From: Caloramator sp. E03
Lineage (GTDB): Bacteria > Bacillota > Clostridia > Clostridiales > Caloramatoraceae
Length of the DNA stretch: 64,000 nt
NCBI RefSeq assembly: GCF_006016075.1
Contig: NZ_CP040093.1
Location: 1,054,001-1,118,000, forward strand
Direction: 5' to 3'
The first letter of the stretch is position 1; every line of letters begins with the position of its first letter. A program made the position numbers and the translations under genes. The notes below the pieces were generated by a model. That model searched no databases. It was given only the letters and a program-made list of their open reading frames with translations, and was not told the DNA's origin. Shown one piece after another: positions 2,847 through 43,914 of the stretch.

Positions 2847-4456
2847 TTATGAATATAGCTTTCTATACTCTAAAGGTTTAATCCCCACAACTTTCGTAAA
2901 TAATTTGCTAAAATATTTTGAATCTTTGTATCCTACCATATCTGCAATTTGACATATATTATAGTTTTTATTTTTTAATAATTCCTTTGCTATATCAATT
3001 CTATAATTAATTAAATATTCACTAAAATTCATGCCTACTTCCTTTTTGAACATTACACTAAAATAAACAGGATTTAAGTGAACTTCATTGGCTATATCCT
3101 CTAATGTAATATCCTTTTTATAGTTCTTACTAATATATTGTTTAGCAACTCTTATTGGCTTGTTTTCCTGGGCTTTTTTATATTGAAGATGCATCTCCAG
3201 ACATTCATTTAATGATTCAACAATATTCTTAACAATCTCATTTAAACTTTTACAACTATCTATTTTTTGTATATTTTTTCTTTGATATAATCTTCATATT
3301 GAAAATCAGTTTTTTTCATTGTATCAAAAAATATTTCAATTATTTTATTGTACCCTTTAAATATTATTAGAGGATCTTCTTCTATTTTAAATCTAACTGA
3401 ATTAAAGAAATCATTAATCCAAGTTTCTATTCCTTTTTTATCAAAGGACTCTATATAATTTGTAAAACTTATTTCTTTTTCCACAGTTAATAACTCACTA
3501 ATATTTACACACCCTAAATTAAAGTTTGATGCATCTAATGTTTTATCTATTCCTAAAACTACCCTGCAATTTATTAAATCCAAAGCTGACTTTAATGAAT
3601 CGGGAATAAATTTTATATTATCAGCAACTAATCCAAAAGCCATAGTTAAATAAAAATATTCCTGTATCTCAAGATAATTTTTAACATCTTCAAATATTTT
3701 TTTATAAATTTTTTTCATTAAATTACTTTTTTCTTCACAGTAATTTAAGATACATACTACTCTTTTATTAAAATTTATCGTTTCTATATCTTGACATATT
3801 TCTTTTAAGTTTTTTTTAACTATTTCACATAGCTTATTAAGAATTATATTCTCATAGTTTTCATTTATATCTTCATTGTTTTTTTTATCAACTTTTAAAA
3901 TAATCCCTTGAAACTTTCCAGATTTAAAATTGAAATTATATTCATTATTTATTTTATTGATATCAGTATCTTCAACGTTGTTGATATTTAATAATATATT
4001 ATATAAAAATTGTTTTCTTATTCTCCCTATATTGTATGTGAGCTGTTTTCTTATCATCATTTCTTCTTCAAGTTTTTTATTATTTATAAAGTATCTATCC
4101 CTTAGCTTTATTAAAATATTAAGTAATTCTTCTTTATTTATTGGTTTTAGAAGGTAATCCTCTACACCGTATCTAACCGCATTTTGTGCATACTCAAACT
4201 GTTTATGCCCACTTATTATTATAAAATTTGTTTCTATGCCTGACTCTCTAACTTTTTTTATCAATTCCAATCCATCTATCCCAGGCATTCTTATATCAGT
4301 TATAACAATATAAGGCTTTTCATTTAAAATTGCATTATATGCGTCAATTCCATTATCAACTTCTGCAACAATTTTTATCCCAAGCTTATCCCAATCTATT
4401 AACTTTTCAATAAGTTTGCAAACCCATATCTCATCATCTGCAATTATAGCTTTCAT
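2847..4456 (-). pseudogene. YesN-type response regulator, receiver plus AraC HTH, split by a one-base frameshift
   Basis: The first part, from the ATG at 4456 (AAAGGTG upstream) to a TAG at 3260-3262, holds the receiver domain (ADDEIW; phospho-Asp in ITDIRMPG) and a long linker. The C-terminal double-HTH AraC domain (ending GIKPLEYRKLYS) is in another frame, 2847-3194. That second frame is open back to the TAG. Adding one base to the A6 run (T6 at 3263-3268 on the plus strand) joins the two into one protein of 536 residues, a normal YesN length. So this is a single gene with a frameshift: true mutation, sequence error, or slippage on the A-run. It would bind DNA and act with the neighbouring LytS/YesM kinase on sugar genes. 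Confidence 0.85.
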
Positions 4457-27767: not shown

Positions 27768-27785
27768 ATCGTTATACAATAAATT

Positions 27786-27855
27786 GGTAGCCCAGCCATC
27801 ATAGCATACGCTTTAGACCCGAGGCTTTGCGTCCCTGTCTTTCGACAAGTTTGCC
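27786..27855 (-). ncRNA. cyclic di-GMP-I (GEMM-I) riboswitch
   Basis: On the minus strand the core reads GGCAAAC, a stem closed by a GAAA tetraloop (TTGTCGAAAGACAG), GGGACGCAAAGCCTC, GGGTCTAAAG as tetraloop-receptor side, then ATGGCTGGGCTACC. This follows the GEMM-I consensus, including the conserved GGGACGCAAAGCC joining region and the 3' GGCTGGGCTACC. It stands between the GGDEF-EAL gene and cheY and is followed by a terminator, so c-di-GMP should control read-through into cheY-W-A-MCP-R-B-X. Whether ligand turns it on or off is not clear from the sequence. Confidence 0.93.
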
Positions 27856-27906
27856 TTTTTCAATTATGCTTAATTATTTATTTTTAAATGCACTTTTTAA
27901 AGATTT

Positions 27907-29193
27907 TCAATTATGCTTTACTAATTTTACAATTTCTTCCTTATCAACAGGCCTGCTAATATAATAGCCTTGTATTTTATGACATCCTATTTCTTTAAGG
28001 TATTCAAATTGATGCATACTCTCTATACCTTCAGCCACAATTAAATATCCTAAACTGTTGAATAAATCAATAAAGCATTTAATCATTAATTTTACCCTAT
28101 AGTCTTCACTTATTAAATCAACTATTTCCTTTGATATTTTTATATACTTTGCAGGTATTTTAATTACATTATTTATCTGAGAATAGTCGCTCCCATAATC
28201 ATCTAAAGCCAAAGATATCCCTAATTCTTGAAGCTTTTTTATAATTTGTCTTTTTTTTGAATCTGCCTTTATTAGCTGTGTTTCTGTAATTTCAAATACT
28301 ATTCTATTAGTATCTATATTATACTTTTCCTTTAAACTTTTTACTTTTTCTATAAAATTCATATCGCTTATCTGAACAGGAGATATATTTATATTTACAG
28401 TTAAATTAATGTTCATATTCTCCCATTCTTTAATTTGTCTAAATACCTTTTCTAAAACCGCATACCCAAAATCAATAATTAATCCTGTCTCTTCTAAAAT
28501 GGGAATAAATTCTACCGGGGGAACTTCTCCAAATTCTTTATTTTTCCACCTTGCCAATGCTTCAACTTCATATATCCTCTCTAAATTAATATCATATATA
28601 GGCTGATATACTAAATAAAATTCATCGTCTTCTAAGGCCTTTTTTAAACAAGCCATAAGCTTTGTCTTTCTTACAATTTTTTCTTCTAAAATCCCTTCAA
28701 ATACGGTCATCTTATTTACCTTAGTTCTTTTTGAATAATTTAATGCCACATCAGCCCTTCTAATTATTTCATACAAATCCTCATTAGGTTTTCCTAAATA
28801 AATACCTGCACTTACTGTCATTAAAAATTTTTTGCCTTCAAATTCAAAAACATCTTCAAATTCATCTATTATTTTAGTAATACTTTCATTAATCTCTTCT
28901 AAAGGCCTATCAACATATAAAACTATGAATTTATCACCACTGAATCTTACTATAAACCCTTTATCTTCATTTAATTTTTTAAGCTTTTGTGCTAATAATA
29001 TTAAAACTTTATCACCAAAAATATGGCCATATGTATCATTTATATATTTAAAGTTATCAAAATCCAATATAGCAAGACCTATTATTTTATCTTTATAATC
29101 TTTGTAAAATTTTTCTAAATAATATTTGTTATAAACATTGGTAATAGGATCAATATATTCAAAATTGTCTACGGCCAAATTGCTTTCTCCCAT
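27907..29193 (-). CDS. c-di-GMP phosphodiesterase with degenerate GGDEF and intact EAL domains
   Basis: 428 residues from the ATG at 29193 (GGGGGG five bases upstream; the ATG at 29217 overlaps the MCP stop). The GGDEF domain is about 20-170 with the signature changed to SGDKF (RFSGDKFIVL), so no cyclase activity is expected; it may bind GTP. The EAL domain, about 185-425, keeps EVEALARW, the NINISPVQ Asn, ITETQL Glu, LALDDYGSDYS Asp pair, the IKISKE Lys and VAEGIE, so it probably cleaves c-di-GMP. No membrane segment is seen. It lies directly upstream of a c-di-GMP riboswitch, which suggests a local feedback loop on the chemosensory genes. Confidence 0.93.
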   Translation of the reverse strand: MGESNLAVDNFEYIDPITNVYNKYYLEKFYKDYKDKIIGLAILDFDNFKYINDTYGHIFGDKVLILLAQKLKKLNEDKGFIVRFSGDKFIVLYVDRPLEEINESITKIIDEFEDVFEFEGKKFLMTVSAGIYLGKPNEDLYEIIRRADVALNYSKRTKVNKMTVFEGILEEKIVRKTKLMACLKKALEDDEFYLVYQPIYDINLERIYEVEALARWKNKEFGEVPPVEFIPILEETGLIIDFGYAVLEKVFRQIKEWENMNINLTVNINISPVQISDMNFIEKVKSLKEKYNIDTNRIVFEITETQLIKADSKKRQIIKKLQELGISLALDDYGSDYSQINNVIKIPAKYIKISKEIVDLISEDYRVKLMIKCFIDLFNSLGYLIVAEGIESMHQFEYLKEIGCHKIQGYYISRPVDKEEIVKLVKHN

Positions 29194-29216
29194 TTTATCC
29201 CCCCATTTTGTATACA

Positions 29217-30944
29217 TTAATTAACCTTAAATTTATTTACAATATTAGCAAGGTCTATTGCCATAGCACTTAGTGTCTGGGAAGTTGATGCTATTTCTTC
29301 TGATGATGCTGATATCTCCTGTGATGATGCCGAAACTTCTTCTGTTGCTGCAGTATTCTCTTCAACTACTGCACTTACTCCTTCTACCTTCTCTAATACT
29401 ATATCCTTAGATTTTACTATTTCATCCATTCCCTCATAGGTTCTATTCATTAAAGGTGCAATGTTTTCAACTGATTCTAATATTAATCCAAAGGACTCAA
29501 CAGTTTTACCTACCGCATTTGTCTGGGATTTTATAAAGTTTTCAACCTCATTTGAAGTTTTTATAACCTCATCTGTATCAGATTGAATTGAATTTACAAG
29601 CTCAATTATATCTGCAGTGGATTTTTTAGACTCCTCAGCAAGCTTTCTAACTTCCTCTGCAACTACTGCAAAGCCTCGGCCTGCCTCTCCGGCCCTTGCA
29701 GCTTCAATTGCTGCATTAAGTGCCAAAAGATTTGTCTGCTCTGATATTGAATTTATAACATTTGTTATATTATTTATTTCTTTAACAGAGCTTGTAAGAT
29801 TTCCAACTTTATTTATAACAACTTCAAAGGCATTTTTAATTTCTTCAATAGATTTAACAAGCTTGTCCATTTCCTGTTTTCCAATATTAGCTTTATCCGT
29901 TGCATTATCGGTTTCAGTTTTTACATTTCTAAGTTCACCATATACATTTTCAATGCTTTTTGTTAAATCAGCAATTAATTGAACGATTGACTGTAAATCG
30001 TTAGCTTGGGAAGATGCTCCATCTGCAACCTGCTGCATAGTATTTGCAAGCTCTTGAGAGGATGATGCCATCTCCTCTGATGTAGCCGATAGCTCCTGGG
30101 AACTTGCACTTAAAGTTTCAGTATTAGTTATAATTTCTAACAATGCCTTTTTAATATTTTCTACCACCATGCTCAAGGATTTATTCATTTGAACAAATTC
30201 GTTTTTGCCATTAGTTTCCATATCGACTGTAAAATCATACTGACTGAGCTTTTCAGCCACATTGTTAATCTGTGCCATTGAATTTTTTAATAGCTTTATT
30301 ACTAAATATGCTAATACTGCCGATAAAATAGTTAGTGAAATAGAAATCCAGATCATTATAGTTCTTGATTTAGAATAAAGTAAATTAGCCCTATCTACAG
30401 CAGCTTTAGATTCAGATGCATTCTTTTCAACTAAACTGTTTATAGCATTTTGAATGTTTACAGTTAAATTTCTTTGATTTTGAATTTCTTCTTGAGATAT
30501 AACCTGATTGGATTTTAATTTATTAACTAATAATTTTTCGTTATCCATAAAAATATTATATGTATTTTCAATTTCTCCAAGCATTCTCTTTTGTTCTTCA
30601 TTCATTTTTGTATTTCTATAGTTTAAAAGTATTTTGTCAATGCTTTCTTTTTTATTATTTATTTTTTGTTCTTGTTCTGCATCATATTTACCTGAAAAAA
30701 TCATTTGCGTTAATGATACTCTGATTTGATAAAATTCGGTTTCAAAAAGTTTTAATTGAAGGGAGGGAAGCATTCTTTCATTATATAGATTGTTCATATC
30801 ATTGCTTAATGTTTTCATGTCGTTAATACCAAGTAATGAAATAGAAATAAGTGAGGCTGCCATAATTAGTACCAAGATAATCAGTAGCGAAGTAATTTTA
30901 ATGTTCTTTAAAATATTAGTGCCTTTGTTATCTTTTTTTACCAT
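29217..30944 (-). CDS. membrane methyl-accepting chemotaxis protein with 4HB-type sensor
   Basis: 575 residues. TM1 is at about 14-40 and TM2 at about 195-217. The roughly 155 extracellular residues between them are helical, like the four-helix-bundle MCP sensor ([17 protein letters not shown] region). A HAMP segment is at about 218-270. The cytoplasmic hairpin has its tip at [20 protein letters not shown] near residue 420. It ends shortly after a Ser/Glu-rich methylation helix, without a CheR-tethering pentapeptide. RBS GGGGAG precedes the ATG. It overlaps the start region of the GGDEF-EAL gene, so both are co-transcribed. Confidence 0.93.
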
Positions 30945-40095: not shown

Positions 40096-40143
40096 AAAAA
40101 GTCCTTCTATATTAGAATTAATTCTAATATAGAAGGACTTTTT
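40096..40143. terminator. perfect 24-bp inverted repeat, strong terminator
   Basis: AAAAAGTCCTTCTATATTAG continuing to a central AATTAATT, then the exact complement ending in a T-run. It serves the minus-strand DUF5667 gene and possibly plus-strand read-through. Confidence 0.85.
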
Positions 40144-40260: not shown

Positions 40261-41229
40261 TTATTCTGTTTTGACATCTGTTATCTGGGTTAAAGTCCCT
40301 CGAGTCTCATTTTTTACTTTGTTTTGTCTTTTCTCTTCAATTTTATTTTTTATCTCTTTTTTTATTTCCTTTTCCTTAATTTTCTTAGATAGCCCAAAAT
40401 TATTTTTCAGCTGTTTTTCAACCTCTTTTGCCTCTTTAATTGTAATATTTCCGCTCTTTACTTCTTGATTTAATACATCCTTTACTTCTTTTTTTAGTCC
40501 TGCATTTTTAACAGCTTCCCTTTTTAATTCTACTGCTTTTTTAAGTTCCTGCTTCTTTGCTTCAAAAGTTGTTTTTGCTGCATTTAAAGTGTCCTGAGCT
40601 TTTTTAATCTCCTCTTCATTTCCTGAAGCCTCTGCTTCTTTTAGCTGCTTTTCTGCTGTTTTTACCTGCTTTTTTGCATCTATCAATTCGTGCCTTTTAT
40701 CTACCATATTAATTACAGCTTCTTTTTTAGCTGTCTGCATTTCTATTACCTTTTGAATAGTTGGCTTTGCATTATCTGAAACCTTGTCCTGTATCTTTTT
40801 CAATACTTCTATTGACCATTTATATCTTTCTTCAATCCTATTTTTTAGCTGCTCAGCATTGTTGTCTATTTTCTGCTGAACATTTTGATTATCATTTGTT
40901 ACAACCTTTTCTATGTTTTCCTGAGCTGTATTCATTTTTTCTTGAAATGCCTCAACGGTTTGTTTTGCTAAATCTTCCTTATTCTCCTCTGCCATAACCT
41001 GTGCTTCTGCAAGCCTCTCCTGAGCAACCTGTTCAATCGTCTCTATTTTCTTTTCATCATCTGTTGTTAATGCAACTTTCACCTCATCAATAAGCTTATC
41101 TACTGGATATAATATACTGTCCGGTGTAATCCCTGCATTAACATTTACATCACTCTCCTCCCCCTGTGCCTTTGCAATAGGGTTAAATGTAATAAAGAGC
41201 ATTAATGTAAAAGCTATAAGTTTTTTCAT
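40261..41229 (-). CDS. secreted DUF5667-type helical protein
   Basis: 322 residues from the ATG at 41229 (AAAGGAGG eight bases upstream). A signal peptide of about 24 residues ends PIAKAQG. The mature start GITPDSILYPVDKLIDEVKV is the DUF5667 signature. The rest is Lys/Glu/Gln-rich long helix (ERLAEAQVMAEENKEDLAKQ and similar), likely coiled coil, with no enzyme motif. It is divergent from sigI-rsgI and has a promoter that mirrors the sigI promoter, so I infer that it is a SigI target acting outside the membrane. Function is unknown. Confidence 0.85.
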   Translation of the reverse strand: MKKLIAFTLMLFITFNPIAKAQGEESDVNVNAGITPDSILYPVDKLIDEVKVALTTDDEKKIETIEQVAQERLAEAQVMAEENKEDLAKQTVEAFQEKMNTAQENIEKVVTNDNQNVQQKIDNNAEQLKNRIEERYKWSIEVLKKIQDKVSDNAKPTIQKVIEMQTAKKEAVINMVDKRHELIDAKKQVKTAEKQLKEAEASGNEEEIKKAQDTLNAAKTTFEAKKQELKKAVELKREAVKNAGLKKEVKDVLNQEVKSGNITIKEAKEVEKQLKNNFGLSKKIKEKEIKKEIKNKIEEKRQNKVKNETRGTLTQITDVKTE

Positions 41230-41266
41230 ATATGTAGCCTCCTTTATTTGTAATTTCACTTTTTAA

Positions 41267-41295
41267 TACGAAAGTTTATAATAATTTAAAGGGGT
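41267..41295 (-). promoter_or_regulatory. SigI-like promoter of the DUF5667 gene
   Basis: Minus strand: -35-like ACCCC (41291-41295), 20-bp spacer, -10-like CGTA (41267-41270), about 38 bp before the ATG. ACCCC and CGWA match what is known of SigI promoters; no sigma-A -10 is better. Confidence 0.65.
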
Positions 41296-41324
41296 ACCCT
41301 TTTAAAAAATATATTTTTTTCGTA
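41296..41324 (+). promoter_or_regulatory. SigI-like promoter of sigI-rsgI
   Basis: Plus strand: -35-like ACCCT (41296-41300), 20-bp spacer, -10-like CGTA (41321-41324) inside TTTCGTATAA, 24 bp before the ATG. The two -35 elements share the palindrome GGGGTACCC at 41291-41299, making exact mirror images with the promoter on the other strand. Confidence 0.65.
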
Positions 41325-41348
41325 TAAATTATTGAAAGGGGGAAGTAG

Positions 41349-42005
41349 ATGGACATTATTAGTAATAAAGATGAATTTATAATAGAAAACAAACCCTTTA
41401 TATATAAAACTGCATCTAATATATGCAAAAGAAATCTCCAGTGGGAAAACGATGATGAGCTGAGTATAGCACTAATTGCATTTAATAAAGCTATAGATAC
41501 TTATGATAATGAAAAAGGAAATTTCTATTCCTATGCAAAAATGCTTATCAAAAACTCCCTTATAGATTATTTCCGCAATAACAGCTCAAAATATACTCTT
41601 TATTTTATAGATGAACAGATAATAGATATTCAAAACAAAAACTCTTTAAACCAATTTGAAATTGAAATAGAAAATAAAATAAGGGCACAGGAAATATATG
41701 AGTTTTCAAGAAAGCTTAAAGAATTTGGAATTGAATTTAAAGATCTTATAAAATCTTCCCCAAGCCACAAAGATACAAGAAATGAATTATTAAACACTGC
41801 TATCAAAATATCAATGAATGAGGATATAGTTAATCTAATGTATAAATCTAAGCAGCTTCCTATAAAAAAAATATGTTTACTAACTTCAAAAAAAGAAAAA
41901 TTCATAGAAAGCTGGAGGCGTTATCTGATTTCCCTTATAATTATTCTCTCAGATGACAGCTTTAAATATATAAAATCTTACCTTAATATAAAGGCAGGTG
42001 ATTAA
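41349..42005 (+). CDS. sigI: RNA polymerase sigma factor SigI
   Basis: 218 residues of the SigI group. Region 2 (FIYKTASNICKRNLQWENDD, then ELSIALIAFNKAIDTYDNEK and FYSYAKMLIKNSLIDYFRN) is followed by a C-terminal half without a standard region 4 but with the SigI-type helices (LTSKKEKFIESWRRYL). It directs polymerase to ACCCC/CGWA promoters and is held by RsgI. RBS AAAGGGGG precedes the ATG. It overlaps the rsgI start and has a SigI-like promoter of its own, so autoregulation is likely. Confidence 0.93.
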   Translation: MDIISNKDEFIIENKPFIYKTASNICKRNLQWENDDELSIALIAFNKAIDTYDNEKGNFYSYAKMLIKNSLIDYFRNNSSKYTLYFIDEQIIDIQNKNSLNQFEIEIENKIRAQEIYEFSRKLKEFGIEFKDLIKSSPSHKDTRNELLNTAIKISMNEDIVNLMYKSKQLPIKKICLLTSKKEKFIESWRRYLISLIIILSDDSFKYIKSYLNIKAGD

Positions 42006-42807: not shown

Positions 42808-42868
42808 AGGGACGGTTACTTATTATATCACAATTTTCTCCACTCTCCGGTGCCAGGCACCTTTTTCG
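42808..42868. repeat. GGGACGGTTACTTATT unit followed by family B palindrome
   Basis: CAGGGACGGTTACTTATTAT, then CAATTTTCTCCACTCTCC and GGTGCC-A-GGCACC with a T-run. The rest of 42869-43053 is AT-rich leader with no gene. Confidence 0.8.
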
Positions 42869-43053: not shown

Positions 43054-43914
43054 ATGCACAAAAGAATTTGGAGTTTTATATTAATCAGTGTATTAGTCTT
43101 TACAATATTATTTGATAATTATGCATTAGCTGCAAATAAAAATATAAATCTCAATGCCAAAGCTGTATATGCTGCAACTATAGATGGGAAAGTTATTTAT
43201 TCATATAATGCCGATAAACAGCTTGGAATTGCATCAACAAGCAAAATAATGACTTATCTTCTCTCCCGAGAACTTATGAAAAAACACAATATAAAATCTA
43301 CAACTCAAATAATACCTAAGATTACAAAAATGCCCAATGATGCTGTTACAATTCCATTAAGTTCAAAAAAGAAGGTATCATTAAGCAGCTTGCTGTCAAC
43401 TATGATGGCAATATCTGCAAATAACAGCGCCGAAGCACTAAGATATTATTTTTCAAGTATAGAAAAAAAAGATTTCATAACGTTAATGAATAACAAAGCA
43501 AAAAGCTTAAACATGAAAAATACAAATTTTATAAATGCATCAGGAATTACAGAAAACGGGAAATACAACAAGTCCACTGCAAGGAGTATGTATTTATTAG
43601 CAAGGGAGACAATATTAAAATATCCTGAAGTTTTGCAATATACTAATAAACAATATATAGTTTTTGAAAACAAAAAACTCCCAACTACTTTTAGCAGCTT
43701 ATTATCAACAGGAATTGATGGTTTAAAAACAGGATATACAGCTGCAGCTGGCAATTGTATTGTTGCAACAGCTACCATAAAAATAAATAACAAAAGTAAA
43801 AGAGTAATTATAGTTATATTAGGTGCTCAAAGTAGCAACCAAAGAAAATCGGATCTAATAAAATTATTAGCCTTAGCAAAGGAATTTGTTAAAAAGAATT
43901 ATAGTAAAACTTAG
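43054..43914 (+). CDS. D-alanyl-D-alanine carboxypeptidase (class A PBP, DacF-like)
   Basis: 286 residues. A signal peptide ends around NYALA (residue 26). The serine peptidase S11 motifs are all present: STSK (Ser61-Lys64), SAN (121-123) and KTG (225-227, LKTGYT). It trims the terminal D-Ala of cell-wall pentapeptides outside the membrane. It is shorter than PBP5/DacF, because it lacks the C-terminal beta domain and amphipathic membrane anchor, so it may be secreted or held by its signal. RBS AAAAGGAG precedes the ATG. Single gene with its own terminator. Confidence 0.92.
   Translation: MHKRIWSFILISVLVFTILFDNYALAANKNINLNAKAVYAATIDGKVIYSYNADKQLGIASTSKIMTYLLSRELMKKHNIKSTTQIIPKITKMPNDAVTIPLSSKKKVSLSSLLSTMMAISANNSAEALRYYFSSIEKKDFITLMNNKAKSLNMKNTNFINASGITENGKYNKSTARSMYLLARETILKYPEVLQYTNKQYIVFENKKLPTTFSSLLSTGIDGLKTGYTAAAGNCIVATATIKINNKSKRVIIVILGAQSSNQRKSDLIKLLALAKEFVKKNYSKT

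What the first reader, a model, noticed from the sequence alone, without database searches (positions are those of the whole stretch)
41229..41348. Mirror-image SigI promoters sharing one palindrome between sigI-rsgI and a DUF5667 gene
ACCC[C/T]-N20-CGTA occurs on both strands with identical spacing; the two -35 boxes are the halves of GGGGTACCC at 41291-41299. Known SigI promoters have ACCCC-type -35 and CGWA -10 boxes. Inference: SigI drives itself and a secreted coiled-coil protein from one switch, and two polymerases cannot bind at once. The DUF5667 protein would be the first-line output of this SigI.
Basis: partly seen in the sequence, partly recalled or inferred. Interest (0 to 1): 0.6.

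Follow-up and report, generated by a model that had tools for sequence, protein, structure and literature searches.

The report
Stress sigma factor with one partner
In a heat-loving Clostridium relative, a membrane-controlled stress switch appears to turn on only itself and one secreted protein of unknown function, from two back-to-back start signals, and related bacteria keep the same pairing.

Summary
Two SigI-type promoters (ACCCY NNN AA N15 CGTA) face apart at 41267-41295 (-) and 41296-41324 (+), between a DUF5667 gene and sigI-rsgI, in a Caloramator genome. They are the only strict-pattern matches in 2.98 Mb. A model built only from sites outside the family ranks them first and second (26.8 and 24.8 bits; next 13.8). 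The pairing is conserved: in 60 genomes all 20 with DUF5667 have sigI, 18 with the genes close together. Of 21 loci taken as divergent pairs, 20 match at least 10 of 11 consensus positions on both strands. Dual SigI control, with DUF5667 as main and perhaps only output, is well supported by sequence. The palindrome and 'one polymerase at a time' are not: the -35 boxes abut in 3 of 20 loci and lie 6 to 823 bp apart in the rest. New: DUF5667 genes away from sigI mostly carry a SigI-type promoter or a c-di-GMP riboswitch, suggesting a regulated surface protein. Nothing was tested experimentally.

The parts
40261..41229 (-). DUF5667 gene, 322 aa, N-terminal signal peptide, helical, Lys/Glu-rich
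   Evidence: PF18915 E 6.1e-26, 91.2 bits, cut-off 27; all-helical low-confidence model, mean pLDDT 55.6; signal peptide read by eye
40100..40139 (.). long perfect hairpin about 120 nt beyond the DUF5667 stop codon, with a T-run on the + strand; possibly a shared terminator
   Evidence: sequence by eye
41267..41295 (-). SigI-type promoter of the DUF5667 gene: ACCCC TTT AA N15 CGTA
   Evidence: 11 of 11 consensus positions; 33.6 bits with R1; 24.8 bits with held-out R2
41296..41324 (+). SigI-type promoter of sigI-rsgI: ACCCT TTT AA N15 CGTA
   Evidence: 11 of 11 consensus positions; 35.3 bits with R1; 26.8 bits with held-out R2
41291..41299 (.). GGGGTACCC dyad formed by the two abutting -35 boxes
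   Evidence: sequence; the same abutting layout only in C. quimbayensis (L003) and G013 (L012) among 20 measured loci
41256..41256 (-). predicted DUF5667 transcription start (within GTGAAA)
   Evidence: inference from SigI numbering with the W of CGWA at -12 (PMC10575876, passages)
41335..41335 (+). predicted sigI transcription start (within TTGAAA), about 14 nt before the ATG
   Evidence: inference from the same numbering
41349..42005 (+). sigI, RNA polymerase sigma-I factor, 218 aa
   Evidence: TIGR02895 187.1 bits, cut-off 185; the only full-length SigI match in the genome
41998..42729 (+). rsgI, membrane anti-SigI factor, 243 aa, with RsgI_N, RsgI_M and a Lys-rich tail
   Evidence: PF12791 47.5 bits and PF23750 63.8 bits
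42740..42773 (+). hairpin after rsgI, separating it from the carboxypeptidase gene at 43054
   Evidence: sequence by eye; the scan lists another terminator-like site at 42849-42861

Best explanation
This is an autoregulated SigI-RsgI envelope-signalling module with one dedicated output. When RsgI loses its hold on SigI, SigI-RNA polymerase transcribes sigI-rsgI to the right (positive feedback plus fresh inhibitor) and the DUF5667 gene to the left from a matching promoter. The DUF5667 protein is exported and most likely acts at the cell surface or wall as the effector. Shown by sequence: the genes, both promoters, their uniqueness in the genome and their conservation. Inferred: SigI dependence, the start sites, the surface role, wall damage as the signal. 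The abutting -35 boxes are a compact Caloramator-type layout of a conserved divergent pair, not the conserved working part.
For: Strict pattern only twice in 2.98 Mb, both here. Held-out model R2 (15 sites: three from named Clostridium species, twelve from genomes outside family f1) puts the pair first and second in the genome at 26.8 and 24.8 bits, next 13.8; in the same-genus genome G001, without a full-length sigI hit, the best is 15.9 bits. 20 of 21 loci with at least 10 of 11 positions on both strands. A search for the mirrored DNA pattern alone in 225 genomes hit 14, of which 11 lie at DUF5667/sigI. DUF5667 in 20 of 60 genomes (own included), all 20 among the 22 with sigI at E below 1e-40, 18 with the genes divergent and within about 1 kb (Fisher p 5.5e-14, not corrected for relatedness). 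Unlinked DUF5667 genes of G138, G187, G165, G209 and G018 still have a site with 10 or 11 of 11 positions. Published consensus ACCCCC--AA 15(N) CGAA, and CCCYYAAA with CGWA for C. thermocellum SigI3 (PMC4711584, passages).
Against: No transcript or protein data. The boxes are not the literal Bacillales consensus (CGTA not CGAA; sixth base T). One of 21 loci (L015) lacks a sigI-side site (8 of 11). DUF5667 is absent from 2 of 22 sigI genomes (G020, G026). In the class sample 6 of 13 DUF5667 genes are unlinked to rsgI, and two of the 13 genomes gave no RsgI_N match. In Clostridium relatives other genes also carry such sites (kinase-like genes in G017 and G049, a lipoprotein gene in G007), so a regulon of one is not general.
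Confidence: 0.78

Rival explanations
1. Exclusive switch: the shared dyad lets only one SigI polymerase bind at a time, so sigI-rsgI and DUF5667 compete.
For: The -35 boxes abut and share TA; 13 of 20 measured loci have 20 bp or less between the boxes, so some interference is plausible.
Against: The gap is 0 in only 3 of 20 and reaches 823 bp, so exclusion is not what is conserved. At gap 0 the two ACCCY boxes do not overlap. By helical pitch their centres lie half a turn apart, on opposite faces (inference).
Confidence: 0.15
2. Feedback partner: the secreted DUF5667 protein acts back on RsgI or its signal, as CpxP does opposite cpxRA (comparison recalled).
For: Divergent, co-regulated, exported helical protein next to a membrane sensor; conserved pairing.
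Against: By consensus nothing else is under SigI here, so a pure feedback protein would leave the switch without an output. DUF5667 also occurs under c-di-GMP riboswitches, away from sigI in G217 and G007.
Confidence: 0.2
3. The dyad is a repressor operator or an intrinsic terminator, not a pair of promoters.
For: A nearly symmetric 22-bp sequence; the scan calls AAAGGGTACCCCTTT terminator-like.
Against: In 17 of 20 measured loci the two -35 boxes are apart, while each keeps its spacing to CGTA and its place before the gene. The symmetry follows from two abutting sites.
Confidence: 0.04
4. Vegetative promoters drive these genes and the SigI match is incidental.
For: A 10 of 12 sigma-70-like match toward sigI at 41255-41282; 6 such sites in the stretch against 1.5 in shuffles.
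Against: The region is A+T-rich. In G013 (L012), which has the same layout, the TATAAT is not kept (read), while both SigI-type sites are.
Confidence: 0.06

Closest known systems
SigI-RsgI systems of Bacillus subtilis and Clostridium thermocellum
   Same: sigI-rsgI operon, autoregulatory promoter with ACCCC/CCCYYAAA and CGWA elements (PMC4711584, PMC6056542, PMC10575876, passages); RsgI_N and RsgI_M domains
   Different: No carbohydrate-binding or enzyme domain was found on RsgI; a DUF5667 gene sits divergently under a second SigI-type promoter; no other consensus targets in the genome
B. [quoted passage not shown]
   Same: The RsgI here ends in a Lys-rich, probably disordered tail; the B. subtilis protein is described so in PMC10128001 (passages)
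   Different: B. subtilis SigI raises mreBH and lytE (PMC10128001, passages); no further consensus site was found in promoter position here
cpxP opposite cpxRA, and lambda PRM/PR (both recalled)
   Same: Divergent envelope-protein gene beside its own regulator; back-to-back promoters with starts about 80 bp apart
   Different: Two-component or phage systems, not a sigma factor reading both promoters

Membership tests
SigI sigma factors | Match to the SigI equivalog model over its cut-off | tested here: met
   TIGR02895 187.1 bits against 185; narrow margin; the PRK08311-type SigI models matched below their cut-offs
RsgI anti-sigma factors | RsgI_N and RsgI_M domains, encoded directly after sigI | tested here: met
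   PF12791 47.5 bits, PF23750 63.8 bits, both over cut-off; the ORF overlaps the end of sigI
SigI-dependent promoters | ACCCC-type box, AA at positions 9-10, 14-16 nt, CGWA, at a gene start | tested here: met
   11 of 11 positions on both strands; held-out model
SigI-dependent promoters | Literal Bacillales consensus ACCCCC--AA 15(N) CGAA | tested here: not met
   CGTA instead of CGAA and T at the sixth base on both strands; CGTA is within the clostridial CGWA
SigI-dependent promoters | Transcription needs SigI | not testable with these tools
   needs run-off transcription or a sigI mutant
DUF5667 proteins | PF18915 over cut-off | tested here: met
   91.2 bits, cut-off 27
Mutually exclusive divergent promoters | Only one polymerase bound at a time | not testable with these tools
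   only geometry is known: boxes abut, predicted starts 79 bp apart
Mutually exclusive divergent promoters | Overlapping or abutting boxes kept across relatives | tested here: not met
   gap 0 in 3 of 20 measured loci, 6 to 823 bp in the others

The most novel reading that the evidence does not exclude
SigI here is a sigma factor with a one-gene output, and DUF5667 is the output: a surface protein family that lineages place either under SigI or under a c-di-GMP riboswitch. Wall stress and the sessile-life signal would then converge on one unknown wall protein.
Probability: 0.4. Interest if true: 0.65.

Novelty: new variant of a known kind. Interest (0 to 1): 0.5.

Why it matters
DUF5667 has no assigned function, and no paper in the held library mentions it. 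Tying it to SigI across many Clostridia gives the family a first testable role. A sigma factor whose consensus regulon is itself plus one gene is also a very clean system for asking what a SigI-RsgI switch without a carbohydrate sensor is for.

Tried and rejected
Window-only statistics were too weak to decide (6 of 100 shuffles reach 2 hits), so I moved to the whole genome and to relatives. The AlphaFold model of DUF5667 (4 sequences, mean pLDDT 55.6) was too poor for a fold search and none was run; a profile search of PDB sequences found nothing. Covariation of -10 variants (CGAA against CGTA) between unlinked DUF5667 genes and the sigI genes of family f23 was inconclusive: no convincing site upstream of sigI in L152, L154, L155, L157-L162, and one 10 of 11 site with CATA in L153. 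The extra relaxed hits in the own genome (19 rows, some overlapping) are mostly inside reading frames; the promoter-positioned exception before an Asp-tRNA-synthetase-like gene (L074, named by eye) looks like a terminator stem. Strict hits elsewhere in 22 genomes were classified only for sites held as loci, not for all. Three of the 14 mirror-pattern genomes (G399, G502, G018) gave no tblastn hit to DUF5667, sigI or rsgI at that place; the reversed control pattern hit 6 of 225 genomes. Rows dropped: L008 (duplicate of L003), L002 (not SigI), and loci without a neighbouring DUF5667 (L004, L007, L016, L025, L026, L029-L036). Of the 21 kept, L017 shows only a signal peptide at a contig edge in place of the DUF5667 gene, and L019 has 1,012 nt between the genes. 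L015 has no usable sigI-side site and was left out of the gap list (20 loci). Literature searches for divergent promoters with a sigma/anti-sigma pair or back-to-back polymerases returned nothing, so the lambda and CpxP comparisons are from memory.

Full report
What is there. The window lies in a 2.98-Mb single-contig genome; its closest named relative is Caloramator quimbayensis (sigI 97% identical). Between the start codons at 41229 (DUF5667, - strand) and 41349 (sigI, + strand) are two sites of identical design: ACCCCTTTAA-N15-CGTA leftward and ACCCTTTTAA-N15-CGTA rightward. The first bases of the boxes are neighbours, so they form GGGGTACCC at 41291-41299. sigI is followed by rsgI (RsgI_N, RsgI_M). 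A hairpin after rsgI (read by eye) and another terminator-like site suggest that the carboxypeptidase gene at 43054 is separate.

Are they SigI promoters? The published Bacillales consensus is ACCCCC--AA 15(N) CGAA; for C. thermocellum SigI3 it is CCCYYAAA, 13-14 nt, CGWA (PMC4711584, passages). Both sites fit the -35 box, the AA, the spacer and CGWA; they differ from the Bacillales form in CGTA and in the sixth base. The strict pattern occurs twice in the genome, both here; the pattern read backwards occurs 36 times, an imperfect control because it contains no CG. A sequence model from 28 sites gives 35.3 and 33.6 bits here and 13.2 next, but these two sites were in its training set. A model from 15 sites, three from named Clostridium species and twelve from genomes outside family f1, gives 26.8 and 24.8 bits here and 13.8 next. 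The search tool scored only the best 150 of 8,824 first-look candidates in this genome.

Is the arrangement conserved? Of 60 genomes (own included), 22 have sigI at E below 1e-40 and 20 have DUF5667. All 20 are among the 22, and 18 have the genes divergent and within about 1 kb. G018 has them 33 kb apart and G007 on different contigs. The threshold was set after seeing a gap in the list between 2.3e-44 and 3.1e-33. In 291 genomes of the class, 13 have DUF5667 over the cut-off and 75 have RsgI_N; 11 of the 13 have both (Fisher p 9e-6). Read from the listed coordinates, 6 of the 13 are divergent neighbours, 1 is in tandem (G277) and 6 are unlinked. Both p-values ignore relatedness.

In 21 loci taken as divergent pairs, the best site has at least 10 of 11 positions on both strands in 20; the exception is the sigI side of L015. 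For single strands, shuffle frequencies reach 0.045, so some single sites are modest alone. No set of 400 shuffles matched both strands together except in L015 (0.0025). A search with the mirrored pattern alone, no protein used, hit 14 of 225 genomes of the order; 11 lie at DUF5667/sigI, including four loci not examined before (G424, G427, G428, G463).

The dyad. The gap between the boxes is 0, 0, 0, 6, 8, 9, 14, 14, 17, 17, 19, 19, 20, 50, 51, 59, 80, 191, 384 and 823 bp in 20 measured loci. Gap 0 is found in the window, in C. quimbayensis and in G013. Abutting boxes necessarily read GGGTACCC, so the palindrome carries no extra information. With the W of CGWA at -12 (PMC10575876, passages), starts are predicted at 41335 and 41256, 79 bp apart. 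Whether two polymerases exclude each other is open. SigIC reads the -35 major groove and the A-tract minor groove in an unusual orientation (PMC10575876, the section on the -35 element), so rules for other sigma factors may not carry over.

Regulon. In this genome relaxed hits other than the pair are mostly inside reading frames. In G002, G010, G012 and G013 too the model finds the pair and then falls to 16 bits or less. In relatives from other genera further promoter-positioned sites appear: kinase-like genes in G017 and G049 and a lipoprotein gene with a helical secreted neighbour in G007 (kinase and lipoprotein named by eye). So the one-gene output is a feature of some lineages, not of SigI in general.

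What DUF5667 may do. The protein has a signal peptide (by eye) and is predicted helical (low confidence). Unlinked DUF5667 genes of G138, G187, G165, G209 and G018 have a site with 10 or 11 of 11 positions upstream. The G138 site was matched by 14 of 200 shuffles, so it is weak alone, and no shuffle test was run for G018. G217 and G007 lack such a site and carry a c-di-GMP-I riboswitch instead; G277 (tandem with sigI) and G152 (DUF5667 below cut-off) also have the riboswitch. G318 has neither. None of 15 other loci scanned has the riboswitch. This alternation points to a surface or wall protein made under wall stress or on a sessile-life signal, and argues against a protein that only serves RsgI.

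Literature. The library holds 0 papers naming DUF5667 and 11 with SigI, RsgI, promoter and consensus. A search for sigI, rsgI, divergent, Clostridium and coiled-coil (4 of 5 terms) listed 8 papers, none by title or abstract start about this pairing. The B. subtilis view, RsgI with a disordered region postulated to sense the wall and SigI raising mreBH and lytE, is from passages of PMC10128001; the primary paper is not held. RsgI autocleavage in its periplasmic domain is from passages of PMC12203970. The RsgI here has an Asn-Pro in VTVSINPEI, which I recall as the cleavage motif.

Verdict. The useful result is a conserved SigI-DUF5667 link and a genome in which it seems to be the whole SigI regulon.

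Noticed in passing
window 27783-27865 (-): A c-di-GMP-I riboswitch (82 bits) precedes a run of CheY-, CheW- and CheA-like genes (27720-24793), directly downstream of a GGDEF/EAL-like gene at 27907-29217 (gene names by eye).
   Followed up: partly
L153, L154, L155, L156, L158, L159, L160: A site with 11 of 11 SigI-promoter positions lies inside the 3' end of sigI, over the conserved P-R-K-T-I-E-R-x-R-type segment and upstream of rsgI, in 7 of 11 loci from two families. It may only reflect protein conservation, or be an internal promoter for rsgI.
   Followed up: partly
L186, L093, L098, L099: c-di-GMP-I riboswitches upstream of DUF5667 genes.
   Followed up: yes
L029-L033: A separate sigI clade (32-33% identical) in genus g11 has no DUF5667 neighbour and no ACCCC box; upstream there is a recurring GTACCNAAA and TTGTATATAATAATGA instead (by eye), perhaps a different SigI promoter type.
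   Followed up: no
L014, L015: A second RsgI-like reading frame follows rsgI (tblastn hits at 3188-3652 and 3173-3655).
   Followed up: no
L139, L145: Kinase-like genes carry SigI-type promoters in two genomes of genus g9.
   Followed up: partly
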